NCBI RefSeq assembly: GCF_014874095.1
Contig: NZ_JADBEB010000001.1
Location: 3,224,001-3,288,000 of the forward strand
DNA from: Plantactinospora soyae
GTDB taxonomy: Bacteria > Actinomycetota > Actinomycetes > Mycobacteriales > Micromonosporaceae
DNA length: 64,000 nucleotides
Direction of reading: 5' to 3'
In this document: positions 26,535 to 41,752 of the stretch, in pieces
Layout of the letters: each line of letters starts with the position of its first letter
How positions within the stretch are numbered: position 1 is the stretch's first letter
Notes under the pieces: generated by a model
Told to the model about the DNA's origin: nothing
Databases searched by the model: none
The model's input: the letters and a program-made list of their open reading frames with translations, nothing else
Translations under genes and position numbers: made by a program

Positions 26535-26648
26535 GCGGCTCTCCGTACCCGGTGCGGGAGGGCCGCCCGGTGACACCCTCCTCGGATAGGCTCCCGACGA
26601 TTGGTTGTGGCCGACAACGCCGCCGGGGGTGGCGACCGGGAGGCGTCG

Positions 26649-28307
26649 ATGTCCTGGCCGGACGGTGGACCGTGGGTGCTCGCCGCGACCTCGACGAACG
26701 CGAACTGGGAGGTGGCGGCCGCCGCCCTCTGCGCCGCCGCCGCCGGACGTACGGCGGTGCTCCGGATCGTCGGGCCCGGACCGGGCCACCGCGGCGGGGA
26801 CGACGGCTCACCGGTCTCCGCCGACGACACCGACCAGAGTGGACAGGGCGAGGACGCCTCCCCGGGCACGCCGCTGCACGACACCGTCGACACGTACGTC
26901 GAGGTGGCGGCCGGTGGGGGCGGCGGGCTGCCGGCCGAGGACGTCGTCGGACTCGTCCAGGCCCTGACCCGGACCCACGGCCTCGTCCTGGTCGGTGGCG
27001 GGCACGGTCTCGCCGTACCGCTGGGTCGGGGTGGCTGGACCCTCGCGGACCTCGCCTGGGCGCTGCCGGCCCCGGTGGTGCTGCTGACCGGCTCGGGACC
27101 GGACGCGGTCAACCACACCACATTGGCTCTGGAGGTTGTCGCCGGTCGTGGCCTCACCGCCTCGGTCGTCGCGATCGGCCCGGACGACGAACTCGGCGCG
27201 CTGCCGGTCACGCTGGCGGGCCGAATTCCGGCGGACGCGGCCGACCGGCCGGCGCGGCTCCGGGCGGAGGCGGCGGGCTGGCTCGATCCGCTGCTGCACG
27301 CCACCCGAGGCCGGCCGGCGACCGGAAGCGCCACCGCCACCGTCCCAGCCACCACCGCCGACCCCACCGCCACCGGCCGCACCTCCTCCTCCGGCGATGC
27401 GCCGGGGTCAGGGTCGGAGCCGGGGTCGGGGGTGGTGGTCATGGTGGACCGGTCGACCACGAGGTCGACGGTCAGTGGCAAGCGGGTGCTGGTCGTCCTC
27501 GTCGGGGTCTTTGTGGTGTCGCTGCTGCTGCTCTGCGGCCTGACCCTGGCTGGCGGCCCGGCGACGGAGATCAGGGAGGTACGGGTCTACTCCAGCCCGG
27601 CCCGGGTGGGTACCGGACGCCCGGTACCGAGCGGACATGTCGTACCCCAGCCGACCGGCGTGCTGCGCGCGACCGGCCTGCCGGCGAGGGTCGCCTGCCC
27701 GCAGTACGCCGGAAGGGTGGCCGGCACCGAACCCGATTCGGCGACGACCGCCCGGGTCAACGCCGTCTGGAGCCGGATCGAACGCTGGTTGGCGGCGAAG
27801 GCACCGCGTACGCACGCCGCGTTGCGGCCGCCGGCATCCCGGGCCCGGATCGCCGCCGCACAGACCCGGATGTCGGTCGCCTTTCCGGCCGACCTGGTCG
27901 CGTCGCTGCGTCGGCACGACGGGGCCAGCGCGATCGACGGCTTCGACCTGCCGCCCTTCTACCGGCTGCTGAACCTCGACGAGATGAGGCTCGACTGGGA
28001 GACCAGTTGTGAGGTGTTGGCTGCTGACGCGCCCGAGGACGACTGGTGGCACCGCGCCTTCGTGCCGTTCGCGTCGGCCGGCGACGGCGGTTGCCTACTG
28101 GTCGACCAGCGGCCCGGCGGACACGGCAGGGTCGGCGAGTTCTATCCGGACGAGGGCACGGGCTTCGACCGCTGGCCGGCGTCGGTCACGGAACTTCTGG
28201 AGGACGTGGCGAGGTCGCTGGAGACCGGCGAGCCGTACGCCGGACAGTACCGGCCCACCGTCGATGCCGAACGCCGACTTGACTGGACGATCGAGAAGTC
28301 GCGCTGA
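26649..28307 (+). CDS. membrane protein with P-loop-like N-domain and SMI1/KNR4 (SUKH) C-domain
   Basis: About 552 residues from ATG 26649, chosen for GGGAGG 5 bp upstream. Residues 1-215 resemble a degenerate dethiobiotin-synthetase-type P-loop domain: GPWVLAATSTNANWEVAAAA, then PAPVVLLTGSGPDAVNHTTL and SVVAIGPDDE, with no intact Walker A. A Thr/Ala/Ser linker leads to one membrane helix (about 278-301). Residues about 375-545 are SMI1/KNR4-like (PADLVASLRRHDGAS, DLPPFYRLLNLDEM, RAFVPFASAGDGGCLLVDQR). SUKH domains are often immunity modules. Basic residues before the helix place the SUKH domain outside, which is unusual. It stands alone. Confidence 0.8.
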   Translation: MSWPDGGPWVLAATSTNANWEVAAAALCAAAAGRTAVLRIVGPGPGHRGGDDGSPVSADDTDQSGQGEDASPGTPLHDTVDTYVEVAAGGGGGLPAEDVVGLVQALTRTHGLVLVGGGHGLAVPLGRGGWTLADLAWALPAPVVLLTGSGPDAVNHTTLALEVVAGRGLTASVVAIGPDDELGALPVTLAGRIPADAADRPARLRAEAAGWLDPLLHATRGRPATGSATATVPATTADPTATGRTSSSGDAPGSGSEPGSGVVVMVDRSTTRSTVSGKRVLVVLVGVFVVSLLLLCGLTLAGGPATEIREVRVYSSPARVGTGRPVPSGHVVPQPTGVLRATGLPARVACPQYAGRVAGTEPDSATTARVNAVWSRIERWLAAKAPRTHAALRPPASRARIAAAQTRMSVAFPADLVASLRRHDGASAIDGFDLPPFYRLLNLDEMRLDWETSCEVLAADAPEDDWWHRAFVPFASAGDGGCLLVDQRPGGHGRVGEFYPDEGTGFDRWPASVTELLEDVARSLETGEPYAGQYRPTVDAERRLDWTIEKSR

Positions 28308-28385: not shown

Positions 28386-29135
28386 TCAGCCGCTGGCCGT
28401 GGTCATCTCGCAGGGCCGCTTGTTGACGGTGCACGCCGTCGGCGCCGAGTCGAAGAGCGACCCGTCGACCCGGAACCGCACCTGGACCGAGCCGTCCGCC
28501 GGAACCCGACGGGTGGTCTGGTCCGGCACGAACGTCCAGGTGTTCCCGTCCCGACTGGTCGTGGCTCCGGAGACCTCGCCGACCGCCTGCGTCGACCGGG
28601 GCAGCGTGATCGTCAGGGTCCAACCCGTGACCGGCCCGGGGCCGGGATTGCTGATCGCCACCGAGGCGGTGTAGTTGAGCAGGTTCGCCCCCTCCGAGGC
28701 GTACCGGCCGGCGAGGGTGGGCGGGGGTGCCGGCGACCGGGGCACCGGCGGTCGCGGCCGCTCGCGGGGGCCGGTGGACGACTCCGGCGGCGGCAGGGCG
28801 AGCGGCGACGACGCGGGTGGGGTCGCGCTGCCGTCGGCGTCGTCCGGCCCGCCTCCGGTGCTCTCCTCGGCGGCGGGGGTGGCCGGCGGCGCCACGCCCA
28901 ACGGGGCGAGCTGATCCGGTGTCCGCAGCAGCGCGGCGACCAGGAATCCGGTGCCGACGACCGCGACCAGCGCCGCGGCGACGATGACGGTCGCCAGGGC
29001 CCGGTCCCCGCGCCGGACCGGCAGCACCCGGGCCACCCGGCGGATCAGACCACGGACCGCCGCCACCCCGGCGAGCAGCAGATCGAGTACGGCGACCGGC
29101 AGCGTACGCGCCGGGCGTTGTCGAACCTTGGTCAC
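28386..29135 (-). CDS. membrane-tethered CBM2-like carbohydrate-binding protein
   Basis: A 249-residue protein: basic cytoplasmic N-terminus, membrane helix at about 45-68 (TVIVAAALVAVVGTGFLVAA), a long Pro/Ser linker (75-145), and a C-terminal domain with the CBM2 pattern: YTASVAISNPGPGPVTGWTL, SGATTSRDGNTWTFVPDQ, then a Cys-bounded end (ACTVNKRPC). CBM2 domains bind cellulose, chitin or other polysaccharides through surface Trp. GTG 29135 has AAGGGA 6 bp upstream. It is the last gene of the leftward unit with the conservon genes (61 bp gap) and could act as a cell-surface glycan sensor or anchor. Confidence 0.82.
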   Translation of the reverse strand: MTKVRQRPARTLPVAVLDLLLAGVAAVRGLIRRVARVLPVRRGDRALATVIVAAALVAVVGTGFLVAALLRTPDQLAPLGVAPPATPAAEESTGGGPDDADGSATPPASSPLALPPPESSTGPRERPRPPVPRSPAPPPTLAGRYASEGANLLNYTASVAISNPGPGPVTGWTLTITLPRSTQAVGEVSGATTSRDGNTWTFVPDQTTRRVPADGSVQVRFRVDGSLFDSAPTACTVNKRPCEMTTASG

Positions 29136-29196
29136 TTGTAATCCCTTCGCTGCGCCCCGGCGCGGCGTTCCGCCCCCGGAACGGCCGGCACCGGGT

Positions 29197-29580
29197 TCAG
29201 AGCGCCCGCAGCCCGGCGAGCACCGCTTCCAGCAGGTCTTCCGAGGGAGCGTCCAGCACCGCCGGCTCGTGGGTCTCGATCAGTCCCGCGTCCAGCAGGT
29301 CGCCGAGCAACACCCGGACAGTACCCACGGGCAGGTCGAGCGCGGCGGCTATCTCGGCCACCGAGAGCGGTCGGCGGCAGGAGACGAGGATCTCGGACTG
29401 TTCCGGCGTCAGATCGGACCGTTCCGGTGCCGGCCCACGGGACACGACCAGGGAGATCAGGTCGAACTGTCCACGGATCGGCTGCGTCCTGCCCCGCGTC
29501 ATCGCGTACGGACGGACCACCGGCCCGGCGTCCTGGTCGTACCAGGCATCGTCGCTGCGACCGCCTCCACCGGTGCGCAC
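29197..29580 (-). CDS. DUF742 conservon protein (CvnC-like)
   Basis: A 127-residue DUF742 protein with VVRPYAMTRGRTQP then FDLISLVV, and a winged-helix-like core (LSVAEIAAALDLPVGTVRVL, DLLDAGLIETHEP). In Streptomyces conservons the order is CvnA kinase, CvnB roadblock, CvnC DUF742, CvnD GTPase. Here the gene follows the roadblock gene after only 6 bp, as expected, but the next gene downstream is the CBM2 protein rather than a CvnD GTPase. The start is GTG 29580. Confidence 0.92.
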   Translation of the reverse strand: MRTGGGGRSDDAWYDQDAGPVVRPYAMTRGRTQPIRGQFDLISLVVSRGPAPERSDLTPEQSEILVSCRRPLSVAEIAAALDLPVGTVRVLLGDLLDAGLIETHEPAVLDAPSEDLLEAVLAGLRAL

Positions 29581-29586
29581 CGCGCA

Positions 29587-30006
29587 TCACCCCCCGGTCA
29601 GGTCATCGGCCGGCACCGGAAAGGTGGGCAGGTGCGAATCCGCCCGACCTGCGGCCAGTGCCACTTCGTAGGCCATCTCGTCGACGTCGGCGTCCCCCTC
29701 GAACCGGACGGCGAGGATCGCGCCGCCCCGGGTCGCGGCGACGAAGAGGAACGCCCGGTGCATCTGCACGATGACCTGACGTACCCCGCCGGGGCCGGAG
29801 TGCCGGGCGGCGGCCTGGGAGAGCGCCTGGAGGCCGGCGACCACACTGGAGAGCTGGTCGGCGAGTTCGCGACCGACCCCCCGGGAGACGCCGAGCAACA
29901 GCCCGTCGGGGGAGAGTGCCACGGCATGTTCGGCCGCCGAGACCCGGTCCACGAACTCGTCGAGTATCCGGACCAGGTTATCCGTCGTGACCACTGCGTG
30001 AGTCAC
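29587..30006 (-). CDS. roadblock/LC7 domain protein (CvnB-like)
   Basis: A 139-residue roadblock/LC7 protein: DNLVRILDEFVDRVSAAEHA, VALSPDGLLLGVSRG, RQVIVQMHRAFLFVA and AILAVRFEGDADVDEMAYEV. Proteins of this fold (such as MglB for MglA) act as partners or activating proteins of small GTPases. Its start at 30006 lies inside the end of the kinase gene (29-bp overlap), showing co-translation. No small Ras-like GTPase is encoded next to it; the nearest GTPases are the dynamin-like pair at 38082-41752. Confidence 0.93.
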   Translation of the reverse strand: MTHAVVTTDNLVRILDEFVDRVSAAEHAVALSPDGLLLGVSRGVGRELADQLSSVVAGLQALSQAAARHSGPGGVRQVIVQMHRAFLFVAATRGGAILAVRFEGDADVDEMAYEVALAAGRADSHLPTFPVPADDLTGG

Positions 30007-32692
30007 CTGTCGTCCTCTCGCTGCTTTCGGGTTGGTCGTCGATGGGCGTCGGCATGGACACCGGCAGCTCCATCGTCACCGACCAGTCGGTTTCGGCGGG
30101 CCGTACCGGCGCGCCGTTCGGGTGCGGATTGGCCGCCCGGGTGGTGGCGGTGGCCGCGTTGCCCTCGTGGGGCCGGCGGACCCGCACCGGAAGGGCCGGA
30201 GGCGCGGCGCCCGGACGCGCCGTACCACCCGGTCGGCCCACTGCGTTGTCGGCCGGCCGTCCTGTCGGGGTGCTGCCGCCCGGGGTGCTTCCCGGGCCGG
30301 ACGCGGGTGCGTCGACCAGCAGGCTATCGGGGACGAGCACGATTGCGGTCGTGCCGCCCCGGGCCCCGGCGGTCATCTCGACCGTTATGCCGTGCCGGCG
30401 GGCGAGCCGGCCGACCACGTACAGGCCGACCGAGCCGCCGAGGGGTGCGGTGGTGGGCGTGTCCCGGATCAGCTCGTTGACGGTGTCCAGCTCCGCCGGA
30501 CCACGGCCCGCGCCGTCGTCATTGACCATGATCACCGCGGCGCCGTTCCGGAATTCGCCGCTGATCCGCACCGTGGTGGTCGACGGCGATCCGGCGAGGG
30601 CGGCCTCGATCACCTCGGCGAGCAGGTGGATCAGGTCCGGCAGGGCCCGCCCCGCCACCGAGCCCGACCAGTTCGGGGCCACCAGCACGCGCGGGTAGTC
30701 CGACGCCTCCGCCACCGCCCCGCGTACGACGTCGACGAGCGGCACCGGCCGTCGCCAGCGCCGCCCCGGAGTACCGCCGGAGAGGCTGATCATCTGCTCG
30801 ACGTTGCGCCGCATCTGGGTGGACAGGTGGTCGAGCTGGAACAGTTCGGCCAGCTCGTCGGTGTCGGTCTCCCGACGCTCCATCGCGTCGAGTAGACCGA
30901 TCTGCCGGTGCAGCAGGCTCTGGTTGTCCCGGGTCAGCCGTACGAAGACCTCCCGGATCCGTTGGTGCGCGGCCAACCGTGCCGCCATCTGGGCGGCCCG
31001 CTCCGTCACCCGCTCGGCCTCGGCCTGTCGCCGGCCGGTCTGGGCCACCAACTGCTCCCGCTGCGTCGCCAACCGCTTGCGCTGGGCCGACAGTTGCGCG
31101 GCCTGCGCGGTCAGCCGCGCGGTCCGCTCCCGCTGGGCGGCCAGTTCGGCCGTCAACCCGTCCCGGGCCGTGCCGAGCGCGGCATGCTCCGCGCCGAGCT
31201 GGTCGAGTCGGCCGACCATCCGTCGGGTGCTCCGGATCGTCAGTACCGCCGCCGCCACCACCGTGACGAGCCCGAGGCCGCCGACCAGGCCGGCCCGGGT
31301 GACGACGCCGACCGCGCCCGGTGTGGCCCGGTCGACGCTGTGCCGTACCCCGCTGGCGACGAGGTTGCGCAGCTCGGACAGGGCCGGCTCGGTCGCCGCC
31401 TGCCACCGCGCCGGCTGGATCGGGACGCTTCCCGCGCTCCGGTCGGCGGCGAGCAGTTCCGCTTCGACGGCGTACAGCGCCCCGAAGACCGGGCCGGTGA
31501 TCAGACGGTCGTACTCGGCCCGCTCGGCGGACGGCAGTCCGGCCGCCGCCTCGGCCCGGGCGAACCGCGCCACGGCGACGAGGTCGACCAGTTGCCGGTG
31601 TTCCGCCTCGGTCAACCGGGTCGCGGCGAGTGCCCCGGCCATCAGGGCGTCCTCCCGGGCGAGCAGCTCGGTGGCCCGGGCCAGGGCGACGAGGGACCGG
31701 GTCTCCTCGATCAGGTCGGTCCGCCGGCTGGCCCACTGTGAGCCGTACACGGCGAAGCCGGCGTCGATGATCTGCCCGTACGACGCGGCGGCGGTGGCCC
31801 GGTCGACCGTGCCGCCGTCGACGGTGTCCCGGAGCGGCCCGATCGCGTCGAGCCGGCGGACCAGTTCGGCCGCCCGCTCCCGGACCGTGCCGACGGTGAG
31901 CAGCCGGAGGTCGGTCTCGCCGACGAACCGCCGCAGCGCCCCGGTCGCGGCGTCGGTCCGGGCCCGTGCCTGGGTCAGGGCGGCCGGGCGCCGGCCCGGG
32001 GCACCCAGCTGCACCATGCTCAGTCGACGTTCCGTCTGGAGGCCGAGGATCAGTGCCTCGGTCGGCCGGCCGAGTTCCGTACCGAGGGTGCGGACGGCGA
32101 GCAGGTCCATCGTCTCCCGGGCGGTCAGGAAGGCGGCGTATCCCCAGAGCACGACCAGCACCAGCAGCAGGGCGGCCGCCTTCTGCACCACCCGGGTGGG
32201 AGCGGCCTCCGTCGTGGACCGACCCGCCGCCGCACCGTCGCCCGGCCGGTTCGCCGCACCGGGGTCGCCGGAACCGTTCGCCCGGCCGGGCCCGCTGGCC
32301 GTACCGGGTCTGCTCGCCGTGCCGGGGCCCTGCGCCGTGCCGGGGCCCTGCGCCGTGCCGGGGCCCTGCGCCGTGCCGGGGCCCTGCGCCGTGCCGGGGC
32401 CCTGCGCCGTGCCGGGGCCCTGCGCCGTGCCGGGGCCCCGCGCCGTGCCGGGGCCCCGCGCCGTGCCGGGTCCGCTCGCCCTGGCGGGCCCGTTCGCCGT
32501 ACCAGCTCCGTTCGTCCTTCCGGAGCTGTTCATCTGACCTGTGCCGGTCGCCGGGTCGGGGCCGGTTGCCCGGACCGGTCCGCCCGCACGGGTCGACCGG
32601 CCGTTGCCGGCGCTGCCGAACACCCGTCCCACCCGGGTCATCCGACGCAGCCCGGCCCGCAACGCGGCCGTACGCCGCACCGCCGGACTCAC
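29978..32692 (-). CDS. NIT-domain sensor histidine kinase (CvnA-like)
   Basis: A 904-residue kinase. The cytoplasmic N-terminus (1-165) contains a GPGTAQ repeat tract. Membrane helices lie near 171-192 and 462-485, enclosing an outside nitrate/sulfonate-sensing-like helical domain (LGTELGRPTEALILGLQTER). A long coiled coil (500-590) leads to the atypical H-box FQLDHLSTQMRRN (His about 622) and an HATPase domain ending GGSVGLYVVGRLARRHGITV, then a Pro-rich tail. GTG 32692 overlaps the stop of the LuxR gene (GTGA), so it is coupled to that regulator. The signal is unknown; NIT domains bind small ligands. Confidence 0.93.
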   Translation of the reverse strand: MSPAVRRTAALRAGLRRMTRVGRVFGSAGNGRSTRAGGPVRATGPDPATGTGQMNSSGRTNGAGTANGPARASGPGTARGPGTARGPGTAQGPGTAQGPGTAQGPGTAQGPGTAQGPGTAQGPGTASRPGTASGPGRANGSGDPGAANRPGDGAAAGRSTTEAAPTRVVQKAAALLLVLVVLWGYAAFLTARETMDLLAVRTLGTELGRPTEALILGLQTERRLSMVQLGAPGRRPAALTQARARTDAATGALRRFVGETDLRLLTVGTVRERAAELVRRLDAIGPLRDTVDGGTVDRATAAASYGQIIDAGFAVYGSQWASRRTDLIEETRSLVALARATELLAREDALMAGALAATRLTEAEHRQLVDLVAVARFARAEAAAGLPSAERAEYDRLITGPVFGALYAVEAELLAADRSAGSVPIQPARWQAATEPALSELRNLVASGVRHSVDRATPGAVGVVTRAGLVGGLGLVTVVAAAVLTIRSTRRMVGRLDQLGAEHAALGTARDGLTAELAAQRERTARLTAQAAQLSAQRKRLATQREQLVAQTGRRQAEAERVTERAAQMAARLAAHQRIREVFVRLTRDNQSLLHRQIGLLDAMERRETDTDELAELFQLDHLSTQMRRNVEQMISLSGGTPGRRWRRPVPLVDVVRGAVAEASDYPRVLVAPNWSGSVAGRALPDLIHLLAEVIEAALAGSPSTTTVRISGEFRNGAAVIMVNDDGAGRGPAELDTVNELIRDTPTTAPLGGSVGLYVVGRLARRHGITVEMTAGARGGTTAIVLVPDSLLVDAPASGPGSTPGGSTPTGRPADNAVGRPGGTARPGAAPPALPVRVRRPHEGNAATATTRAANPHPNGAPVRPAETDWSVTMELPVSMPTPIDDQPESSERTTGDSRSGHDG
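32316..32459. repeat. 18-bp coding minisatellite in the kinase gene
   Basis: Eight tandem units of GCCGTGCCGGGGCCCTGC: six identical (32316-32423) and two with CCCGC at the end (32424-32459). On the minus strand each encodes Gly-Pro-Gly-Thr-Ala-Gln (or Arg). The unit is a multiple of three, so copy changes only alter the length of the cytoplasmic N-terminal tract. Confidence 0.95.
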
Positions 32693-35322
32693 CGCGTCGT
32701 CCGTTCCGGCCAGGGAGTTCCGCCCGGCCGGCCGCCGGACCGCTCCTCGACGATGGTCCGCAGCCGGGCCAGCAACTCGCTGCGGTTCGCGCAGTTGAGC
32801 CGTTGCCGCATCCGCGCCACGTGGTGCTCGACGGTCTTGGCCGAGATGAACAGTCGATCGCCGATCTGCTTGTAGGTCAGGCCGGAGAGCACCAGTTCGG
32901 CGACCTCCCGCTCACGCTCGCTGAGCCGGTCCTCGGCCGGTACGGCGATCGCGTCCGCCACCTGCGCCGCACCGGTACCCGTCGGTCGGGTCGTCCCCTT
33001 GACGCCGGCCGGCCGGCCCTGGAGCATCCGCGCACAGTCGAGCAGGGTGGTCATCGCCCGCCGGTCCGAGGTCCGGATCGCGGCCTGGCCGGCGAGTCGG
33101 GCACCGTCCCAGCAGAGTCCGATCCCGTGCAGGCCCCGGGCCGCGGCCTCCACCCGGATCGGGTCGACCACGCCACGCAGCACCTCGACCCAGCTCTGCC
33201 CGGCGGCGGCCACCACGGAGGCGTACGGGGTGTGGCCGGTGGTCGCGGCGAGCGCGGCGACGTGCTCGTCGGCGACGTTCGGCCGGTCGGCCAGGATCGC
33301 CGCGTGCAGGCAGCTCCAGTGCAGTGGAGTCGCCCACAGTGGAGGATCGCCGAGCAGGCCCAGCAGGTTCCGGGCCTCGCCCAGGTACGGCGCCAGCCGG
33401 TCCAGCTCGCCGAGCCGGGCGGCGGCGATCGCGAACTCGCCCAGTGGCAGCAGCGTGAACAGGTCCACCGGATGCCGTACCACCGCTTCCCGGGCCCGCT
33501 CCCAGCCGCGTTGCAGCGCCGGAAGGTCGCTGTTGCGGCGGGCGACACCCAGCTCCAACGCGGTGGCGAAGAGCAGGTCGCGGGACTCCAACGGCAGTCC
33601 GCCGGCGGTCACCGTCGCCAACTGCCGACCGGCCTCGGCGGTCCGGCCCCGCACCATCAGCAGCCAGGTCTGCAACAGCCGGTGCCGGCGCGCCATCAGG
33701 GCGGCACCGAGGCCGGCCGAGGCGGCCCGGTCGAGCGCCCGCTCGCCGATGTCCAGCTCGCCGCAGTGCAGCGCGACCAGCGCGGCGAGCACCGCCGGGC
33801 TCTCCGGCAGCAGCACCGACCGTCCGGCCGGTTCGAGCAGCGCGGACGCCTGCACCAGGGTGGAGAGGGCGGCGGTCGGTGGGCCGGACAGCGTCTCCCG
33901 CAGCCCCCGGGCCATCAACTGCGCGGCACTGGCGAGCAGGGTCGGCGGGCCGTCCGTCGGCGGGTCGGCCAGTACCCGGTCGAGCAACTCCGACCGGCCG
34001 GCACCGACCGCGCCGATCGCCGCGAACGCCACCGACGCGGGCGTACCCGACCAGCGGTAGAGCTCGACGGCGCGGTCGGTGTGGCCCCGGTGTACGAGCG
34101 CGGTCGCGGCGACCGCCGCCCCCTCCGCCCGGTACGGCGAGTCGGGCGTGGCGATCAGCCGGTCGGCCAGCCGCAACGCGGAGTCCAGGTCGGCGGAGAG
34201 CGCGGCGGCCATGGCGCGGCGGGCCGCCGCCGGTCGACCGGCGGCCTCGGCCACGGCGAAGAGCCGGGCCGCGAGCGCCGGCTCGTCGGTCAGCGCCTCG
34301 TCCCCGGCAGCCTCGGCGACGGCGGCCGGACAGCTGCCGCCGAATCCGCCGTCGAGCAGCGAACGGACCAGCGGAAGCACCCGGCCGCCGCGCTGGAGCT
34401 GGAGTTCGGCGAGGCGCTGCCAGACCGCGGCCCGCTGGCTCGCCGGGCTCAGCGCGACGATGGCGCGCCGGACGATCGGCGCGAGCCGGTCGTCCGGGCC
34501 GAGCAGTCCGGCGGCACGGGCTGCGGCCAGCGGTTCGTCCAGCTCGTCCGGGTGCCGGGACAGCAGCGCGCCGAGCAGGTCGGTCGGCAGGGTCACCCCG
34601 GCCGACATCGCCAGCAGCAGCCGGCGTACCTCAAGGTCCAGGCTCTCCAACTCGGGCGCGAACTGGAGCAGCACCGACCGGGGAATCTCGAAGGGCGATC
34701 CGGCGGGTGCCGGGCCGCCGCTGCCCGGGCGGTCCGCGGCGGCGGGCCGCTCGCTCCGGACCTGCCGGCGGTCGCCCGGGCGCAGCGCCCGGGCCAGCCA
34801 CTCGACGAACCTGGGTACGCCGGCGGTCTGCTCGTGTACCAGCCGGACGTTGGCCGGCGACACCGTCGTCCCGTACGTCGTGTTCAGGTACGCGGCCGTG
34901 CGCTGCTCGGTGAACGGGCCGAGTGGTACCGGCGGTCCGCCCCGGTGCAGCAGCTCCGCCAGGTCCACCAGCTCCACCGGTCGGGGCCAGGGCCGGAACG
35001 CGACCACCAGCCGGACCCGGCCGGTCTCGGCCAGCCGGCGCAGTTCGGTCAGCGCGGCGGCGTCGAGCAGGTGCGCGTCGTCGACGAGCAGGACCTGGCC
35101 CGGATCGTCGGAGTCTGTCAGGTCCCGCCAGTTGTCGAGTACCGGGACTCCCGCCTGCTGGTATCCGCGTCGCAACCGGGCCAGCAGGGCGGTCTTGCCG
35201 TGCCCGCCGCTGGCCTGCACGGCGGTGCTCAGCGGGGCCTGCGGGTCGGCCTCCACCCGGGCCAGGAAGGCCATGGTCTGCTCGTCGAGCACGAGCGGGG
35301 TGTCGGTGTCGGTACGCAGCAT
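32689..35322 (-). CDS. LuxR family regulator with AAA ATPase domain (IniR-like position)
   Basis: An 877-residue MalT/LAL-type regulator. The N-terminal ATPase has Walker A SGGHGKT (38-44) and Walker B VLLVDDAH (about 76-83), followed by long helical TPR-like repeats. A C-terminal LuxR HTH covers LSEREREVAELVLSGLTYKQ and KTVEHHVARMRQRLN. In mycobacteria a LuxR-type AAA protein (IniR) activates iniBAC. Here the gene is 11 bp after the Hsp70 gene, overlaps the kinase gene, and is divergent from iniB-, iniA- and iniC-like genes, which makes control of that operon likely. The longer frame to 36411 runs antisense-like through the Hsp70 gene and is rejected. Confidence 0.9.
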   Translation of the reverse strand: MLRTDTDTPLVLDEQTMAFLARVEADPQAPLSTAVQASGGHGKTALLARLRRGYQQAGVPVLDNWRDLTDSDDPGQVLLVDDAHLLDAAALTELRRLAETGRVRLVVAFRPWPRPVELVDLAELLHRGGPPVPLGPFTEQRTAAYLNTTYGTTVSPANVRLVHEQTAGVPRFVEWLARALRPGDRRQVRSERPAAADRPGSGGPAPAGSPFEIPRSVLLQFAPELESLDLEVRRLLLAMSAGVTLPTDLLGALLSRHPDELDEPLAAARAAGLLGPDDRLAPIVRRAIVALSPASQRAAVWQRLAELQLQRGGRVLPLVRSLLDGGFGGSCPAAVAEAAGDEALTDEPALAARLFAVAEAAGRPAAARRAMAAALSADLDSALRLADRLIATPDSPYRAEGAAVAATALVHRGHTDRAVELYRWSGTPASVAFAAIGAVGAGRSELLDRVLADPPTDGPPTLLASAAQLMARGLRETLSGPPTAALSTLVQASALLEPAGRSVLLPESPAVLAALVALHCGELDIGERALDRAASAGLGAALMARRHRLLQTWLLMVRGRTAEAGRQLATVTAGGLPLESRDLLFATALELGVARRNSDLPALQRGWERAREAVVRHPVDLFTLLPLGEFAIAAARLGELDRLAPYLGEARNLLGLLGDPPLWATPLHWSCLHAAILADRPNVADEHVAALAATTGHTPYASVVAAAGQSWVEVLRGVVDPIRVEAAARGLHGIGLCWDGARLAGQAAIRTSDRRAMTTLLDCARMLQGRPAGVKGTTRPTGTGAAQVADAIAVPAEDRLSEREREVAELVLSGLTYKQIGDRLFISAKTVEHHVARMRQRLNCANRSELLARLRTIVEERSGGRPGGTPWPERTTR

Positions 35323-35333
35323 CAACGGGGACC

Positions 35334-36761
35334 TCACCGAACCGACCCGATCGGGGCCGCGACGGTCAGTGCGTCGGGGCCGGCGGCGACACTGAGCAGC
35401 CCGGCGAGGCCGATCGCCAGGACCGCCAGCGCCACCGTCATGGTGCCGCGCCCGGACGCGAGGCGGGACAGCGCCCGGCTCGGCATCTCCAGCGGGGTGA
35501 TCCGGATCGGTGGCCGGGGCGGCAGTTGGGTCCGCTCCTCGTCGTACCGGCCTGGTTCCCGGCCGGTTCCGTCCGGCTGCTGACCGGACCGGCCCCGCTG
35601 TCGTCGGGCCGGCGGCTCGCCGCGCTGGAATCCCGGTCGGGGCGGTCGCATCACGGGTGGCCGGGGCGGCGGACGGTTGCCCCGTTGGTGGTCCAGGATC
35701 TGGCAGCCGGAGAGTGCGGCACCCGAGGCGACGGTGAGCTGCGGATCGGCCTCGACCGCGACCGGCACCGGGAACCGGTCGGCGAGCAGTTCCCGGACCA
35801 GTGGGATCCGGGCCGACCCGCCGGCCAGCAGGACGCCGTCGAGCTGGCCCGGGGCCAGGCCGCAGGAGCGCACCGTACGGGCCAGTTCGTCCACGGTCAT
35901 CGCCACGACGGGCCGGATCAGTTCCTCGAACTCGGAACGGGTCACCGGCACCCGGGTGTCCCGGCGCGGCAACCGGACCAGCACGTCCGTGCTGCCGGCG
36001 ACGCTCAGCGCCGTCTTGGCCCGCCGGCACTCGCGCCGCAGGTCGACCAGTGCCTGCCGGACCAGTGGGTCGGTCAGGTCGGACAGTTCCTTGCTGAGGC
36101 CGGTGCGGACGTGCTCGACCAGTACCTCGTCGAAGTCGGCTCCGCCGAGCGGCTCGGTGTCGGAACGGCCGGCCCGCAGTTCGAAGCCGAGTGGCTGGGC
36201 CCGGTCGACCACCGCGGCTTCGAAGCCGTGGCCGCCGAGGACGTAGACCGCGAGGGTCCGGCCGGTGAAGCCGTGCGCGGCGTGGCTGGCGGCCGCGACC
36301 ACCGGCGTGGGCAGCAGCGTGACGTCGGTCAGGCCGGCGTCCCAGAGCGCCTCGGCGAGCAGGTGCCGGCGGTGGCCGCCCCAGCCCGCCGGGTGGCGCA
36401 GGACGATCCACTCAGGACGTTCGCCCTCCTGGTCCACCACCCGCTCGACCACCCACATCGCCAGCATCGCGGTGAGGGCCTGCGCCGAGCACGCCTCGCC
36501 GCCCACCAGCAGGGGTACGTCGTCGCCGATCCGGCGGGTGAACCCGCGCGCGATCCAGCCGCTGTCGACCTGCCCGTGGTACTCGTCGGGGTCGTCGACC
36601 GTGATCGACCGGTTGCTGGACATCAGCAGTACGGACGGCGCGGTGTGCTCGACCGCGCCCAGTCGGACGGGTTCGGGCGGATCCCAGGCGTTGCCCCGGA
36701 GTCGGACGACAGCGGCAGCCGTGGTGGTGCTACCGATGTCGATTCCGAGGACGTAGGGCAT
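35334..36761 (-). CDS. Hsp70-like ATPase with C-terminal membrane anchor
   Basis: A 475-residue protein. The actin-fold ATPase domain has phosphate loop 1 (VLGIDIGSTTTAAAVV, residues 4-19), phosphate loop 2 in YVLGGHGFEAAVV, and the adenosine motif VLLAGGSARIPLVRELL near 330. The substrate-binding domain of DnaK is absent; instead there is a Pro/Arg-rich linker (375-440) and one membrane helix (about 444-463). ATG 36761 has GGAGG 9 bp upstream. It heads the leftward six-gene unit and is divergent from the IniB-like gene. It probably works as a membrane-bound ATP-dependent switch rather than a classical folding chaperone. Confidence 0.88.
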   Translation of the reverse strand: MPYVLGIDIGSTTTAAAVVRLRGNAWDPPEPVRLGAVEHTAPSVLLMSSNRSITVDDPDEYHGQVDSGWIARGFTRRIGDDVPLLVGGEACSAQALTAMLAMWVVERVVDQEGERPEWIVLRHPAGWGGHRRHLLAEALWDAGLTDVTLLPTPVVAAASHAAHGFTGRTLAVYVLGGHGFEAAVVDRAQPLGFELRAGRSDTEPLGGADFDEVLVEHVRTGLSKELSDLTDPLVRQALVDLRRECRRAKTALSVAGSTDVLVRLPRRDTRVPVTRSEFEELIRPVVAMTVDELARTVRSCGLAPGQLDGVLLAGGSARIPLVRELLADRFPVPVAVEADPQLTVASGAALSGCQILDHQRGNRPPPRPPVMRPPRPGFQRGEPPARRQRGRSGQQPDGTGREPGRYDEERTQLPPRPPIRITPLEMPSRALSRLASGRGTMTVALAVLAIGLAGLLSVAAGPDALTVAAPIGSVR

Positions 36762-37116
36762 CCGACCATTCCTCCACCGCGAGTCATTGTCCCGGTACGG
36801 CGAGTGGGGTGATGTCGCCCCACCGGGGCCCGGCCCGGGCACTTGGCATCGCCCGGTGGGCCGTTAGGGAGTCATCTTTTCGTACCAGAGATCTATCCGC
36901 CATCAGGACCCTAACTCTGACGGAACGCATCCCCTATTCCCCTAACGCAGATCTAAGGTCCGGCCCTAGCGTGAACGGTCTGAAACCCGGCCTCGTCCCC
37001 GATGTCCGGTGCGGCGTTCCCCGCCTACCGTCGGCTACGACATTCGAACCGCGACGCGCCGGTTCACTGCACCCAGTCCACGGACCGGGCGAGGATCGCA
37101 ACGAGGAGACCGGCAC
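36762..37116. promoter_or_regulatory. divergent promoter region between Hsp70 and IniB-like genes
   Basis: 355 bp without a gene. It is less GC-rich than its neighbours and holds repeated motifs: GTTAGGGAGTC near 36863, ACCCTAACTC near 36909 (its near-complement), CCCCTAACGC near 36939 and CCCTAGCG near 36965. GTTAGGG/CCCTAAC half-sites in both orientations are a plausible binding array for the LuxR regulator encoded at 32689-35322. Promoters for both directions must lie here. Confidence 0.55.
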
Positions 37117-37980
37117 ATGGGCTCGCCCCAGACCTTGCACGATTTCGTGCTCAACCTGCTGACCAACCCGGATGCCCGGTCGGCGTTCGAGATCGATCCG
37201 GAGGGGACCCTGCGGGAGGCGGGCCTGTCCGACATCAGCGTCGCGGACGTGCAGGACGTGGTGCCGCTGGTGGTGGACTACGCGCCGGTCCAGGGCCTCA
37301 CCTCGCTGGTTCCGGTCGGTGACGATTTCGGACTGGGGCAGTTCCAGCTCGACCCGAGTGGCGTGATCGGCCAGTTGCAGAGCGTCGCGCAACACATCCC
37401 GGTGGGTACGCACACCACGGGTTCCGACATCAACGCGGCGACGCTCGGTGCGATCAGCGTCGCGCCGAGCAGCCTCGGCATGGTTGGTTCGGTCCTGCCG
37501 GGTCTCGGGATCGAGAACGACCCCCTCGCGGATCCGCTGGGCCCGACCGGGGTGGACGTCGCCGAGACTCTCGACGCGGACGTCGCGGACCCGGTGCTCA
37601 CCGTCCCGACCGATGCGGTCGGCACCACCGACGGTCTGGTCGGCGACACTGTGGACGGCAGCGGACTGGGCGTGGTCGACTTCGCCGGTGACACGGTGCG
37701 GGGCACCCTGGACGGGGTCACCGGGCTGGTCGACTCGCTGGGCGTGAGCGGCACCGTCGGTGGCGTCGGCGATGCCCTGGACCTCGACCAGCTCGGTTCC
37801 GCCGACGCGCCCATACTCGGCGAACTCGACGCCACCTCGCCGGTGACCGGCCTCACCGACCAGGTCGGCGACACCCTGCACGGGACCACCTCGGGTGTCC
37901 TCGGTGACAGCGGCCTGACCGGAGACGAAGACGCCTCCACCTCCGGCGGCCTTCTGGGAATCACGGACGGCCTTCTCTGA
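37117..37980 (+). CDS. IniB N-terminal domain protein
   Basis: A 287-residue protein. The first 60 residues carry the IniB-type motif: TLHDFVLNLLTNPDARSAFE, then DPEGTLREAGLSDISVADVQ. The rest is a Gly/Asp/Val/Thr-rich low-complexity domain with repeats such as VGDTVDGSG, LGVVDFAGDT and LTDQVGDTL. No signal peptide is seen. In mycobacteria iniB leads the iniBAC operon induced by cell-wall inhibitors. ATG 37117 has GAGGAG 8 bp upstream. A strong hairpin follows the gene, so the downstream dynamin genes may receive less transcript. Confidence 0.88.
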   Translation: MGSPQTLHDFVLNLLTNPDARSAFEIDPEGTLREAGLSDISVADVQDVVPLVVDYAPVQGLTSLVPVGDDFGLGQFQLDPSGVIGQLQSVAQHIPVGTHTTGSDINAATLGAISVAPSSLGMVGSVLPGLGIENDPLADPLGPTGVDVAETLDADVADPVLTVPTDAVGTTDGLVGDTVDGSGLGVVDFAGDTVRGTLDGVTGLVDSLGVSGTVGGVGDALDLDQLGSADAPILGELDATSPVTGLTDQVGDTLHGTTSGVLGDSGLTGDEDASTSGGLLGITDGLL

Positions 37981-38003
37981 GCGCGGGAAGTCCGTGAGGC
38001 CCA

Positions 38004-38041
38004 CCGAAGGCCGGACCGTGGTCCCACGGTCCGGCCTTCGG
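38004..38041 (+). terminator. strong hairpin between iniB-like and iniA-like genes
   Basis: Two perfect 18-nt complementary arms (38004-38021 and 38024-38041; CCGAAGGCCGGACCGTGG and its complement) separated by 2 nt, followed by the T-richer TCCTCTTGATAATT. This is a strong intrinsic terminator or attenuator 23 bp after the IniB stop and 40 bp before the IniA start. Confidence 0.85.
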
Positions 38042-38081
38042 TCCTCTTGATAATTCCGGCGCAACCGGCACACTTGGTGCG

Positions 38082-40166
38082 GTGACGGCGCCCCTCTGGC
38101 TTGATGTCCTCGACGAGATCGTTCGGGTCTCCGGTGCGCACGGTCGTGGCGACCTCATCCAGCGGCTCCGGCGCAGGCGGGCCCAACTGCTGGATCCGAG
38201 GTTGCGGGTGCTGGTGCTCGGCGAGCCCAAACAGGGCAAGAGTCAACTCGTCAACGCGTTGCTCAACGCCTCGGTCTGCCCGGTGGGCGAGGGCGTCAGC
38301 ACCACCATCCCGACCGTCGTGGCGCACGCCGCGGCGCCGACCGCCGCCCTGGTCTGGAGCCCGCTGCCCAGCCATCCGGAACCGACCCAGCGGCGGTCAG
38401 CGGACGAGCGGCGATCACCGGACGGCCGGTCGGCGCAGCGGCGCGGTCCCGACGGCCGGTCGGCGCAGCGGCGTACTCCGGAGGATCGGCTCGGGACGTC
38501 CCGCGCCGCCGCCCCGGTCGCCGCGCAGGCGGCCGGCCCGGCCCGGCGGGTCACCGTACCGATCGAGCAGGTCACCGCCCGGATCAGTGGTCGTGGCGCC
38601 GGGATCGCCGACGTCGTCGCCGCAGCGGAGGCCACCGGTACGACAACGGGTGCCGGCCGTACGACCGGGATCGGGGACACCTCCGGGCGGCGTCCCGGCG
38701 GTGCCGAACACGCGGAGATCGGCATCCCCCGGGAACTGCTCGCCTCCGGGGTGGTGCTGATCGACACCCCGGGTGCGGGCGGCACCGACCCGGGCCGGGA
38801 GATCAGTCCGGCCGCCATTCCGGGCCACGCCGATCTGGTGCTGCTGGTCTCCGACGTGACCCGGGAACTCTCGGTCACCGAGTTGAACCTGCTGCTGCAC
38901 ATCGCCGGGTCGCAGGCCAACCTGGTCATCGTGCAGAGCAAGATCGACATGGTGCCGCACTGGCGTACGGTGGTCGAGCGCAACCGGCAGCACCTGGCCG
39001 ACGCGGGTGTGCCGGCGACGCTGATCCCGGTCTCCGCGACGCTGCGGTTGCAGGCGGCCCGGAGCAACGACAAGGAGCTCAACGCCGAGTCGCACTTCCC
39101 CGAGCTGATCAACCGGCTGAAGCGGGACCAGGCCGGCAAGTCCGAGAACCTGGCCCGCGCCGCGGTGGCGCTGAGCGCCCGGACCGTCATCGAGCAGCTC
39201 GCCGCGCCGCTGCGGGCCGAACTCGCCGTCTCGACCGCCGTGGAGTCCTCCGGCCCGATCTCCAAACTGCACGCGGCGCAACGGGAGGTGGACGAGCTAC
39301 GCCGGTGCTCCGTGCGCTGGCAGAACACCCTCAACGACGAGATGGCGGACCTGATGTCCGACGTCGAGTACGACCTGCGCGACCGTACCCGGCAGATCCT
39401 GCGCAAGGTGGACGAGGCGTTCGACAAGGCCGACCCGCTGACCGGCTGGGACACCTTCCAGGACTGGCTGACGGAGAACCTGACCGACGCGGCGGAGGCG
39501 AACTACGCCTGGCTGGCCGAGCGCTGCGGCTGGATCACCCAGCGGGTCGCGAGCCGGTTCGACCGGTACGACTTCGACGCGCTGCCGAGCTGGTCCGTAC
39601 GGGTGCCGGAGAACCTGGCCGACCGGATCCAGGTGATGGACCAGCCGTCGGTCGAGCGGTTCACCCGGACCCAGAAGCTGGTCACCGGACTCCGCGGTTC
39701 GTACGGCGGGGTGCTGATGTTCGGCCTGGCCACCACGTTGGCCGGAATGCCGCTGATCAACCCGATCTCGCTGGGTGCCGGTGCGCTGTTCGGCGGCAAG
39801 AGCGTGCGCGACGAGGGCAAGTCGCTACTGAAGCGGCGCCAGGCGGCGGTCAAGACGGCGACCCAGCGGCACGTCGACGACTTCTTCCTCCGGCTGAGCA
39901 AGGACTGCAAGGACACCGCCCGGCAGGTGCAGCGGATGCTCCGGGACCACTTCACCGGGCTGACCGAGGAGTTGCAGGAGGGGATCGTGCGGTCGTTCCG
40001 CAGCGCCAAGCAGGCGGCGGAGGCCGACGCGGCAGAGCGTGACCAGCGGCACCGGCGGATCGCGCTGGAGATGAAGCGCCTCGCGGACCTCTACGAGCAG
40101 TCCCAGGCGCTGGTCGGCGCCCAGAGCGTCGCCGCCGGGCCGACCGGCCTGGAGCCGGGGCCGTGA
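38082..40166 (+). CDS. dynamin-like GTPase, IniA type
   Basis: A 694-residue bacterial dynamin-like protein. GTPase motifs: P-loop GEPKQGKS (47-54), G3 DTPGAGG (from 228), G4 SKID (from 286). Between P-loop and G3 there is an unusually long insertion (about 100-200) rich in Arg/Ser with a repeated DGRSAQRR block. A helical bundle follows, and a hydrophobic patch near 538-575 (GVLMFGLATTLAGMPLINPI) may be the membrane paddle. Dynamins bend or fuse membranes; mycobacterial IniA is linked to plasma-membrane maintenance under drug stress. GTG 38082 is the start. It overlaps the IniC-like gene (GTGA). Confidence 0.92.
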   Translation: MTAPLWLDVLDEIVRVSGAHGRGDLIQRLRRRRAQLLDPRLRVLVLGEPKQGKSQLVNALLNASVCPVGEGVSTTIPTVVAHAAAPTAALVWSPLPSHPEPTQRRSADERRSPDGRSAQRRGPDGRSAQRRTPEDRLGTSRAAAPVAAQAAGPARRVTVPIEQVTARISGRGAGIADVVAAAEATGTTTGAGRTTGIGDTSGRRPGGAEHAEIGIPRELLASGVVLIDTPGAGGTDPGREISPAAIPGHADLVLLVSDVTRELSVTELNLLLHIAGSQANLVIVQSKIDMVPHWRTVVERNRQHLADAGVPATLIPVSATLRLQAARSNDKELNAESHFPELINRLKRDQAGKSENLARAAVALSARTVIEQLAAPLRAELAVSTAVESSGPISKLHAAQREVDELRRCSVRWQNTLNDEMADLMSDVEYDLRDRTRQILRKVDEAFDKADPLTGWDTFQDWLTENLTDAAEANYAWLAERCGWITQRVASRFDRYDFDALPSWSVRVPENLADRIQVMDQPSVERFTRTQKLVTGLRGSYGGVLMFGLATTLAGMPLINPISLGAGALFGGKSVRDEGKSLLKRRQAAVKTATQRHVDDFFLRLSKDCKDTARQVQRMLRDHFTGLTEELQEGIVRSFRSAKQAAEADAAERDQRHRRIALEMKRLADLYEQSQALVGAQSVAAGPTGLEPGP

Positions 40167-41752
40167 GCCGGGCGAACGGGCTGGACGAGTCGACCTGGGA
40201 TCTCCTGCACGAGGCGCTGGAGCTGTATCGGGACCATCCTCGGGCCGTCGACCAGTTGAACCGTCAGCTCGGCCGGTTCTCCGAGCCGCTGCGGATCGCC
40301 GTCGCCGGCCCGTGGCGGTCGGGCAAGTCCACCCTGCTCAACGCGATCATGGGCGAGGAGGTCGCCCCGGTCGAGGTGGCGGACGGCCGCCAGGTCTTCA
40401 CCTGGTACGAGGACGGGCCGGCACCCCGGGTCACCGCGTACCCGGCCACCGGCTCGCCCCGGGACCTCGCGGTGAGCCGGAGCGGCGGCGGCATCCGGGT
40501 CGACCTGGGTGGTGGCCGGTGGGACCAGGTCGACGACATCGTGGTGCAGTGGCCGGCCCGGGCCCTGCGGCACGCCATCCTGATCGATACCCCGGCGGTG
40601 ACTCCCGGGATCGACGACGTCCTGGCTGGCGGCGACGACGAGCACTCAGGTGACGGCCGCTCCGGCGAGCGGCGGCTGGCGCTCGGTGCCGGGCCGGCCG
40701 CCAACGCGATCGCGGGGCTGCCCGGTGGCGGTGGTGCCGGGCTGTCCGACGGCGGCTCGGCGACGATAGACCGGATCGTCCGCGAGGCCGACGCGGTGCT
40801 CTACCTGAGCCGGGACGGCCGGGGCGACGACCTGCGGCTGCTCCAGACCGCGCTGCCGGGCACGGTCGCCCGGGCGGCGCCGGTCAACGTACTCCTGGTG
40901 CTGTCCCGGGTCGACGAACTCGCCGGTGGTCGGGTGGACGCGCTGCTGACCGCCCGGCAGCTCGCCCGGCGGCACCGGCGCGATCCGAGGATCAACTCGC
41001 AGTGCCTGAGTGTGGTCGCGCTCGGTGGTCTCGTCGCGCTGGCGGGGCGGATGCTGAGCGAGCCGGAGTTCGCCGCGCTGGCCGTACTGGCCGGGCTCGA
41101 ACGGGCGGAGACGGACCGGGTTCTGCTCTCCACCGACCGGTTCACCGCCGCCGACTTCCCGGTCCCGCTCGACGTCGAGACCCGGCGTGGGCTGCTGGAC
41201 CGGCTGGGCATCTTCGGGGTACGCCTCTCCACCACCCTGATCCGGACCGGTTGCGACAGCCGGGGCAAGCTCGCCGCCGAACTGGTCCGGCGGAGCGGGC
41301 TGACCGAGCTGCGGGAGTCGATCACCCGGTACTTCGTGGACCGGGCGCCGGTGCTCAAGTCCCGGGCTGCGTTGCTGGCGCTGGAGTCGCTGCTGCTGTC
41401 CGAACCTCGGCCGGGCGCGAAGGAGTTGCTGGCCCGACTGGAGCAGGTGCTGACCGGCGCGCACGAGTTTCGGGAGTTGCGACTGTCGGCCGCGCTGCTC
41501 GGCGGCCAGGTCCGGTTCGATCCGGAGCTGACCGCCGAGGCGAATCGGCTGATCGGGGCGGACGGCACCAGCGTGGCGGCCCGGCTGGGTGTCGAGCACG
41601 ACGCCGGGGTGGACGAGTTGTGGGCCCGTGGTTCGGCGGCGGTACGCGACTGGCAGGAACTGGCCGAGGATCCGGTACGCGGTCTCGACCAGCGCCGGGC
41701 GGCCCGGGTCGTGGTCCGCAGCTGCGAGGGCATGCTCGCCGACCTCTCCTGA
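40163..41752 (+). CDS. dynamin-like GTPase, IniC type
   Basis: A 529-residue partner GTPase. Motifs: P-loop GPWRSGKS (49-56), G3 DTPAVT (from 142), G4 SRVDE (248-252). It is shorter than the IniA-like protein and lacks an obvious hydrophobic paddle, as is common when two bacterial dynamins work as a heteromeric pair. The GTG start overlaps the IniA stop codon, giving 1:1 coupled synthesis. A Gly-rich low-complexity insertion lies between G3 and G4 (about 150-190). It probably assembles with the upstream dynamin on the membrane. Confidence 0.9.
   Translation: MSRANGLDESTWDLLHEALELYRDHPRAVDQLNRQLGRFSEPLRIAVAGPWRSGKSTLLNAIMGEEVAPVEVADGRQVFTWYEDGPAPRVTAYPATGSPRDLAVSRSGGGIRVDLGGGRWDQVDDIVVQWPARALRHAILIDTPAVTPGIDDVLAGGDDEHSGDGRSGERRLALGAGPAANAIAGLPGGGGAGLSDGGSATIDRIVREADAVLYLSRDGRGDDLRLLQTALPGTVARAAPVNVLLVLSRVDELAGGRVDALLTARQLARRHRRDPRINSQCLSVVALGGLVALAGRMLSEPEFAALAVLAGLERAETDRVLLSTDRFTAADFPVPLDVETRRGLLDRLGIFGVRLSTTLIRTGCDSRGKLAAELVRRSGLTELRESITRYFVDRAPVLKSRAALLALESLLLSEPRPGAKELLARLEQVLTGAHEFRELRLSAALLGGQVRFDPELTAEANRLIGADGTSVAARLGVEHDAGVDELWARGSAAVRDWQELAEDPVRGLDQRRAARVVVRSCEGMLADLS

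What the first reader, a model, noticed from the sequence alone, without database searches (positions are those of the whole stretch)
28386..41752. Hsp70-LuxR-conservon operon divergent from an IniB/double-dynamin operon: a candidate membrane-stress system
Sequence: six minus-strand genes (membrane Hsp70, LuxR-AAA, NIT kinase, roadblock, DUF742, CBM2 protein) are packed with gaps or overlaps of +11, -4, -29, +6 and +61 bp, and are divergent from IniB, IniA-like and IniC-like genes over one 355-bp region. Known: mycobacterial iniBAC responds to wall inhibitors and is driven by a LuxR-type IniR; conservons normally encode a small CvnD GTPase. Inference: here the roadblock protein may serve the dynamin GTPases, giving one circuit from surface sensing (CBM2, NIT) through kinase and Hsp70 to membrane-remodelling dynamins.
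Basis: partly seen in the sequence, partly recalled or inferred. Interest (0 to 1): 0.85.

Follow-up and report, generated by a model that had tools for sequence, protein, structure and literature searches.

The report
Expanded ini envelope-stress gene cluster
A soil actinomycete carries a relative of the gene cluster that mycobacteria switch on when their cell wall is damaged, here with an Hsp70-like gene that proves to be a usual companion, a shared candidate DNA switch site, and borrowed signalling genes that come and go among its relatives.

Summary
Observation confirmed. The locus (genus Plantactinospora) is a homologue of mycobacterial iniR-iniBAC: full-length IniR-family activator, IniB-type protein, IniA-type dynamin and a second dynamin in IniC's place.

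Two corrections. (1) Hsp70 is no local addition: it accompanies iniR, iniB and both dynamins in 48 of 48 testable Micromonosporaceae loci and lies in 37 of 38 other actinomycete stretches; ten tested proteins have only the ATPase domain. (2) The conservon genes are accessory: all four occur in 16 of 50 testable family loci, some in 23, none in 11, and 0 of 38 elsewhere. CvnD is absent although 7 of 8 DUF742 loci of this genome have it, and the kinase-like protein lost its N-box Asn in this genus.

New: a tandem CCCCTAN-N-CCCCTAA site in the divergent region. Its only other exact copy in this genome precedes a second iniB-type gene; its presence follows iniR in Micromonosporaceae (32 of 53 against 2 of 107) and in a Mycobacterium-like genus (16 of 19 against 0 of 8). 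It is the likely IniR operator.

Likely working (inferred): IniR activates the ini operon; Hsp70 and conservon remnants tune IniR. Roadblock acting on dynamins is untested and not favoured.

The parts
35334..36761 (-). hsp70-like gene (ATG start; mechanical ORF from 36842): Hsp70 ATPase domain only, then linker and a C-terminal hydrophobic segment
   Evidence: Pfam HSP70 8e-29, profile positions 103-375 of 599; DnaK ATPase domain 3.3e-26; best 19-residue hydrophobic window 2.36 near the C-terminus
32689..35322 (-). iniR-like gene, 877 aa: ATPase plus LuxR-type DNA-binding domain
   Evidence: NF038181 residues 18-859, 4.5e-141, 472 bits, cut-off 750 not met; only full-length match in the genome
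29978..32692 (-). cvnA-like gene, 904 aa: NIT sensor plus HATPase_c; N-box Asn replaced by Ala
29587..30006 (-). cvnB-like roadblock gene, 139 aa
   Evidence: Robl_LC7 1.5e-15; solved relative named cvnB5, 3leq, 1.4e-16
29197..29580 (-). cvnC-like DUF742 gene, 127 aa
   Evidence: PF05331 2.5e-36
28386..29135 (-). membrane-anchored CBM2-fold protein, 249 aa
   Evidence: CBM_2 1.4e-7; model with two N-terminal helices, a low-confidence linker and a beta domain matching CBM2 6qfs, 1.0e-10
37117..37980 (+). iniB-like gene, 287 aa
   Evidence: IniB_NTERM 69.8 bits, cut-off 40
38082..40166 (+). iniA-like dynamin gene, 694 aa
   Evidence: M. smegmatis IniA 6j72, 6.4e-85
40163..41752 (+). second dynamin gene in the place of iniC, 529 aa
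   Evidence: Dynamin_N 7.2e-5, under cut-off; model with weak matches to mitofusins and IniA; same profile found beside IniA-like genes in other families
36931..36945 (+). tandem CCCCTATTCCCCTAA, candidate IniR operator; further CCCTA units at 36909 and 36964 (+) and an inverted CTCCCTAAC facing hsp70 at about 36864
36879..36893 (.). conserved block TTCGTACCAGAGATC between hsp70 and the tandem site, role unknown
   Evidence: alignment; words of this block in up to 41 of 50 Micromonosporaceae intergenic regions

Best explanation
The locus is an enlarged member of the ini envelope-stress systems. IniR, a signal-transduction ATPase of the MalT kind, binds tandem CCCCTAA units between hsp70 and iniB and turns on iniB-iniA-iniC, whose IniB-type repeat protein and two dynamins stabilise or cut damaged membrane. 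The Hsp70 ATPase-domain protein belongs to the system and most likely sets the activity of IniR, for instance by holding it at the membrane as MalK holds MalT (analogy recalled). The conservon-derived CvnA, CvnB, CvnC and the CBM2-fold membrane protein were added in Micromonosporaceae, work without CvnD, and are most likely optional surface inputs that also act on IniR, with which they share an operon. SHOWN here by sequence: gene identities, co-occurrence, absence of CvnD, patchy presence of the conservon genes, loss of the N-box Asn, conserved site and its link to iniR and iniB. INFERRED: IniR binding to the site in this genus, activation, Hsp70 acting on IniR, inputs of the conservon proteins.
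For: IniR profile over the full length and one such gene in the genome. Hsp70, IniB and both dynamins with iniR in 48 of 48 testable family loci; in 38 other loci (stretches of up to 20 kb, counted anywhere in them) Hsp70 37, IniB 35, each dynamin 36, in different orders, e.g. all on one strand in L121 and with iniR after the dynamins in L113. Ten Hsp70 proteins from nine loci all match only the ATPase domain, ending at profile position 369-374 of 599. Site: CCCCTAR in 71 of 75 hsp70-iniB regions, 200 shuffles mean 6.1, maximum 13; 6.31 per kb inside against 0.056 per kb in the rest of the loci scanned. Exact tandem in 160 Micromonosporaceae genomes: 45 matches, reversed control 4; 30 at an ini locus, 1 before iniB on a split contig, 8 some 240-284 bp before a second IniB domain, all 7 Plantactinospora genomes among them. 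Genomes with a type-I iniR 32 of 53, without 2 of 107; Mycobacterium-like genus 16 of 19 against 0 of 8. In mycobacteria IniR is shown to bind directly in front of iniBAC and to activate it (PMC5760070, abstract and sections 10 and 11 read).
Against: IniR here is under NCBI's equivalog cut-off (472 against 750), so transfer of function is by homology, synteny and site. The exact tandem is missing from 21 of 53 genomes with type-I iniR, and the tandem from 43 of 75 hsp70-iniB regions, most of which carry single or differently spaced units. Of 45 family matches, 5 have no evident relation to ini genes; of 20 matches in the Mycobacterium-like genus 7 lie elsewhere, and 3 of its 16 positive genomes have the tandem only elsewhere. 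With one mismatch allowed the own genome gave 2 matches and the reversed control also 2. No promoter or terminator consensus was found. Nothing here measures binding or expression.
Confidence: 0.6

Rival explanations
1. One reading: the roadblock protein, having no CvnD, regulates the two dynamin GTPases directly, making one circuit from surface sensor to dynamins.
For: No CvnD in the window or in any fetched ini locus apart from a separate conservon in L066. CvnB is the only conservon gene left in 3 testable loci (L038, L043, L068) and the only one seen in L045, which runs off its contig. MglB-type roadblock proteins act on a GTPase (PMC8510531, section 15 read).
Against: Dynamins are present in all 48 testable family loci, roadblock in 25 of 50; CvnA and CvnC are kept without CvnB in 10 of 50; no roadblock was found in 38 loci outside the family. 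The roadblock gene lies in the iniR operon, not the dynamin operon.
Confidence: 0.1
2. The conservon genes are a decaying conservon that was inserted behind iniR and rides on its promoter; it signals elsewhere or is being lost, and has nothing to do with ini output.
For: Patchy, stepwise presence, no CvnD, N-box Asn lost in 7 of 7 Plantactinospora while 23 of 23 other ini-linked CvnA copies and 6 of 7 canonical ones of this genome keep it, the seventh not alignable.
Against: Remaining subsets lie behind iniR on the same strand (required by the count, but also seen); frames remain open across genera, with tight overlaps in the window; roadblock proteins are nearly identical within the genus.
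Confidence: 0.2
3. Hsp70 serves the effectors rather than the regulator: it disassembles or loads the dynamins or IniB at the membrane.
For: It also accompanies the dynamin pair in 21 of 22 type II loci, and in some loci it lies next to the dynamins rather than iniR (L105, L107, L108, L074-L080).
Against: In the window and most family loci it is co-directional with and directly upstream of iniR, divergent from the dynamins; it has no substrate-binding domain. Type II loci also hold an IniR-like gene, so they do not separate the two readings.
Confidence: 0.2
4. The CCCCTAA site belongs to another regulator or sigma factor of envelope stress, and IniR binds elsewhere.
For: Some copies lie away from ini genes; one lies about 90 bp before a complete conservon in G122.
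Against: Presence follows iniR in two distant groups and position follows iniB-type genes in 39 of 45 family matches.
Confidence: 0.15

Closest known systems
Mycobacterial iniR-iniBAC (Rv0339c, Rv0341-Rv0343)
   Same: Divergent regulator of the same family, IniB-type protein, IniA dynamin and second dynamin in the same order; shared CCCCTAA units in the control regions of a Mycobacterium-like genus; a dnaK-like gene beside iniR is mentioned in one sentence for M. smegmatis (PMC5760070, section 10)
   Different: IniR under the equivalog cut-off; Hsp70 between iniR and iniB; CvnA, CvnB, CvnC and CBM2-fold genes behind iniR; wall chemistry differs, so trehalose need not be the cue
Conservons (cvnA-B-C-D)
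   Same: CvnA with NIT and HATPase_c, roadblock CvnB, DUF742 CvnC in the usual order
   Different: No CvnD; N-box Asn lost in this genus; placed behind iniR; further reduced in relatives
MalT with MalK (recalled)
   Same: Large ATPase activator with a LuxR-type C-terminal domain next to a candidate membrane-associated ATPase partner
   Different: Hsp70 instead of an ABC ATPase; interaction not tested
Paired bacterial dynamins such as CjDLP1/2 and Leo proteins
   Same: Two dynamin genes side by side; weak PADLOC match to LeoBC (1e-10) and LeoA (8.2e-6)
   Different: First dynamin is far closer to IniA (6.4e-85)

Membership tests
ini (iniR-iniBAC) envelope-stress system | IniR-family activator beside the operon | tested here: inconclusive
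   Full-length profile match, 472 bits, equivalog cut-off 750 not met; a homologue, not an NCBI equivalog
ini (iniR-iniBAC) envelope-stress system | IniB N-terminal domain protein first in the operon | tested here: met
   IniB_NTERM 69.8 bits, cut-off 40
ini (iniR-iniBAC) envelope-stress system | IniA dynamin | tested here: met
   6j72 IniA, 6.4e-85
ini (iniR-iniBAC) envelope-stress system | IniC dynamin | tested here: inconclusive
   No solved relative at 0.001, Dynamin_N under cut-off; place and profile agree with the gene after iniA in other loci
ini (iniR-iniBAC) envelope-stress system | Induction by wall inhibitors through IniR | not testable with these tools
   No expression data; only the shared site
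Conservon | CvnA, CvnB, CvnC in order | tested here: met
Conservon | CvnD Ras-like GTPase | tested here: not met
   No CvnD found in the 64-kb window; 7 of 8 DUF742 loci of the genome have it
Conservon | CvnA ATPase residues | tested here: not met
   N-box Asn is Ala in the window and Ala, Ser or Thr in the other six Plantactinospora copies; the role of this Asn is recalled
CBM2 cellulose-binding module | CBM2 fold | tested here: met
CBM2 cellulose-binding module | Exposed Trp residues of the binding face (roles recalled) | tested here: not met
   Two Trp of 1exg align with Ser and Thr; the third lies before the aligned part
Hsp70 chaperone | ATPase domain | tested here: met
Hsp70 chaperone | Substrate-binding domain | tested here: not met
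   Pfam match ends at 375 of 599; same in 10 of 10 relatives tested

The most novel reading that the evidence does not exclude
Actinomycete ini systems are a five-part machine in which a membrane Hsp70 ATPase domain gates a MalT-like ATPase activator, and in Micromonosporaceae a conservon stripped of its GTPase has been rewired into this switch, so that roadblock, DUF742 and NIT proteins signal to an IniR-type regulator instead of a Ras-like GTPase.
Probability: 0.3. Interest if true: 0.8.

Novelty: new variant of a known kind. Interest (0 to 1): 0.58.

Why it matters
How IniR is switched is not settled. A near-constant Hsp70 companion, mentioned for one species in the IniR paper that I read in part, gives a named candidate for a missing partner, and a short site shared between Plantactinospora and a Mycobacterium-like genus gives a defined operator to test in harmless soil strains. 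The conservon part is a natural case of CvnA, CvnB and CvnC without CvnD, useful for asking what these proteins do apart from a small GTPase.

Tried and rejected
Rfam: no match in the window. Promoter and terminator consensus scan: none. PADLOC: only weak Leo-type dynamin matches and one to the LuxR-type domain, so no defence system is claimed. The single genome-contig scan with Hsp70 returned 4 loci, 3 Plantactinospora and a distant deltaproteobacterial one; it named the genus but gave no breadth. Fold of the second dynamin: weak matches only (best 1.3e-4, TM-scores of the best 20 at most 0.36), not used as proof of IniC. First CvnA alignment failed because of wrong coordinates and was redone. 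The first count of conservon genes wrongly dropped CvnA (downstream part) and was replaced; the tag A on L040, L042, L067 and L069 in the tree rests on low scores and is not counted. The tree is of the quick kind, rooted at the midpoint for drawing, with 6 short rows left out, so 'gained once, then eroded' stays an inference: L048 and L063, both without conservon genes, branch first among 52 family rows, but support for the next fork is 82. Relocation of the ini-type roadblock was checked in the 11 genomes without conservon genes at the ini locus: best roadblock elsewhere 76.9-102.9 bits, near the 91 bits of the best other one in the own genome; only the two best were looked at and both are complete A-B-C-D conservons. 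Absence from print: searches. In one search none of the 6 papers with at least three of the five terms holds conservon or roadblock. One search gave one paper with conservon and dynamin, seen in the listing only. One search gave 85 papers, of which 10 were listed, none of them on ini genes; the other 75 were not seen, so absence of the site from print is not shown. Subscription papers, such as the iniBAC promoter paper of 2000, were not read.

Full report
What is there. The window is 3224001-3288000 of a single-contig genome of 9,715,930 bases.

Identity. The LuxR-type gene matches NCBI's IniR profile over its whole length (4.5e-141, 472 bits) but not at the equivalog cut-off of 750; it is the only full-length match in the genome. 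The iniB product carries the IniB N-terminal domain, the first dynamin matches the solved M. smegmatis IniA at 6.4e-85, and the second dynamin has no solved relative at 0.001 and only weak fold matches, mitofusins and IniA among them. So this is an ini-type locus. In mycobacteria IniR activates iniBAC and binds directly in front of it, and IniA cuts membranes in vitro (PMC5760070, abstract, sections 10 and 11 and searched passages; PMC6715688, passages).

How far it is conserved. IniR-family genes at 1e-30 occur in 73 of 160 Micromonosporaceae genomes and at 1e-50 in 41 of 393 genomes drawn from the class, 39 of them not fetched before. I fetched 73 and 39 neighbourhoods. Two kinds of loci appear. 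Type I, with IniB, comprises 52 fetched family loci plus the window and 38 of the 39 others. Of the 53 family loci, 48 had at least 7.5 kb of contig on the ini side, and all 48 hold Hsp70, IniB and both dynamins. Of the 38 others, Hsp70 is in 37, IniB in 35, each dynamin in 36; L112 and L118 run off their contigs, L119 and L123 lack a detectable IniB (counted anywhere in the stretch). Gene order varies, from all on one strand (L121) to iniR behind the dynamins (L113). Ten Hsp70 proteins from nine fetched loci, one of them type II, match Pfam HSP70 only over the ATPase domain. The Hsp70 is therefore a usual part of ini loci. The IniR paper mentions a dnaK-like gene beside iniR for M. smegmatis in one sentence.

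The conservon part. Of 53 family loci 50 could be judged (3 run off their contigs). CvnA, CvnB, CvnC and the CBM2 gene (X) are all present in 16; other sets are ACX 5, AC 5, BX 4, B 3, AX 3, CX 1, BCX 1, BC 1; none in 11. Singly, CvnA 29, CvnB 25, CvnC 29, CBM2 30 of 50. None was found in the 38 loci outside the family or in the 22 type II loci (that call undercounts CvnA, but, without position filters, shows no CvnA score above 35 there either). The genome has 8 DUF742 loci; 7 have CvnD next door and the ini-linked one has not. No fetched ini locus has its own CvnD; L066 has one in a separate conservon. In the ATPase domain of CvnA the N-box Asn is replaced in 7 of 7 Plantactinospora copies, kept in 23 of 23 other ini-linked copies and in 6 of 7 canonical ones of this genome, the seventh not alignable. 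This suggests that ATP use by CvnA is dispensable here. The CBM2 protein is predicted to have membrane helices, a flexible linker and a CBM2 fold, but two of the Trp positions of 1exg are Ser and Thr, so cellulose is an unlikely ligand.

A candidate operator. Seven Plantactinospora hsp70-iniB regions align with long invariant blocks rich in CCCTAA units. The word CCCTAA is in 49 of 50 family regions and 24 of 25 others, where shuffles give 5.1 and 2.0. CCCCTAR is in 71 of 75 regions (200 shuffles: mean 6.1, maximum 13) and has a density of 6.31 per kb there against 0.056 in the rest of the loci scanned. The tandem with 8-bp period is in 32 of 75 regions; 15 further copies all lie in the Mycobacterium-like loci L093-L111, outside an hsp70-iniB region as I cut it. 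In the own genome the tandem with up to one mismatch occurs twice, both exact, once here and once before a second IniB gene; the reversed control also gave two, but none exact. In 160 family genomes there are 45 exact matches against 4 of the control: 30 at ini loci, 1 before iniB on a split contig (G073), 8 before a second IniB domain, 1 before a complete conservon in G122, and 5 with no evident relation. Genomes with type I iniR carry it in 32 of 53 cases, others in 2 of 107 (Fisher 2.7e-17); in the Mycobacterium-like genus 16 of 19 against 0 of 8 (7.4e-5), with 13 of 20 matches at the ini locus by comparison of coordinates, and 3 matches of the reversed control (tests). Relatedness of the genomes is not corrected for. 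That this genus is Mycobacterium is inferred from the IniR cut-off, which 19 of 393 genomes met, all of this genus.

How it works. Most likely IniR activates the ini operon from the tandem site, and an inverted unit facing hsp70 in Plantactinospora suggests that it also acts on its own operon. Hsp70, an ATPase domain with a C-terminal hydrophobic segment, is the best candidate for a membrane partner of IniR. The conservon remnants share the operon of iniR, and each can be lost while IniR and the dynamins stay, which fits optional inputs to IniR.

Verdict. It is a new variant of a known kind, with two general points of interest: Hsp70 as a standing member of ini loci and a testable operator.

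Noticed in passing
G000:C1:4281041-4281441, L143 8021-9370 (-): A second IniB-domain gene (449 aa, repeat-rich) outside the ini locus has an exact tandem CCCCTATGCCCCTAA just upstream; all 7 Plantactinospora genomes and G007 have the same pairing.
   Followed up: partly
L072-L092 and L130: A second, type II kind of locus: IniR-like gene, Hsp70 and two dynamins in 21 of 22 (L089 is cut), with a repeat-rich protein in 20 that matched the IniB N-terminal domain only weakly in one of two tested.
   Followed up: partly
L157 (G122:C10), about 5325: The tandem site lies about 90 bp before a complete CvnA-B-C-D conservon, the one non-iniB match with a plausible target.
   Followed up: no
L146 64-3099: A canonical conservon of the own genome is preceded by an Hsp70-domain protein of 1011 aa with a weak PQQ-type propeller match.
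   Followed up: no
window 36879-36893: Block TTCGTACCAGAGATC, conserved in most Micromonosporaceae hsp70-iniB regions but not among the top words elsewhere.
   Followed up: no
window about 32300-32500 (-): The N-terminal part of CvnA holds a run of PGTAQG-type repeats, seen in the translation.
   Followed up: no
window 26601-28307 (+): Convergent neighbour with a SUKH (SMI1/KNR4) domain.
   Followed up: no
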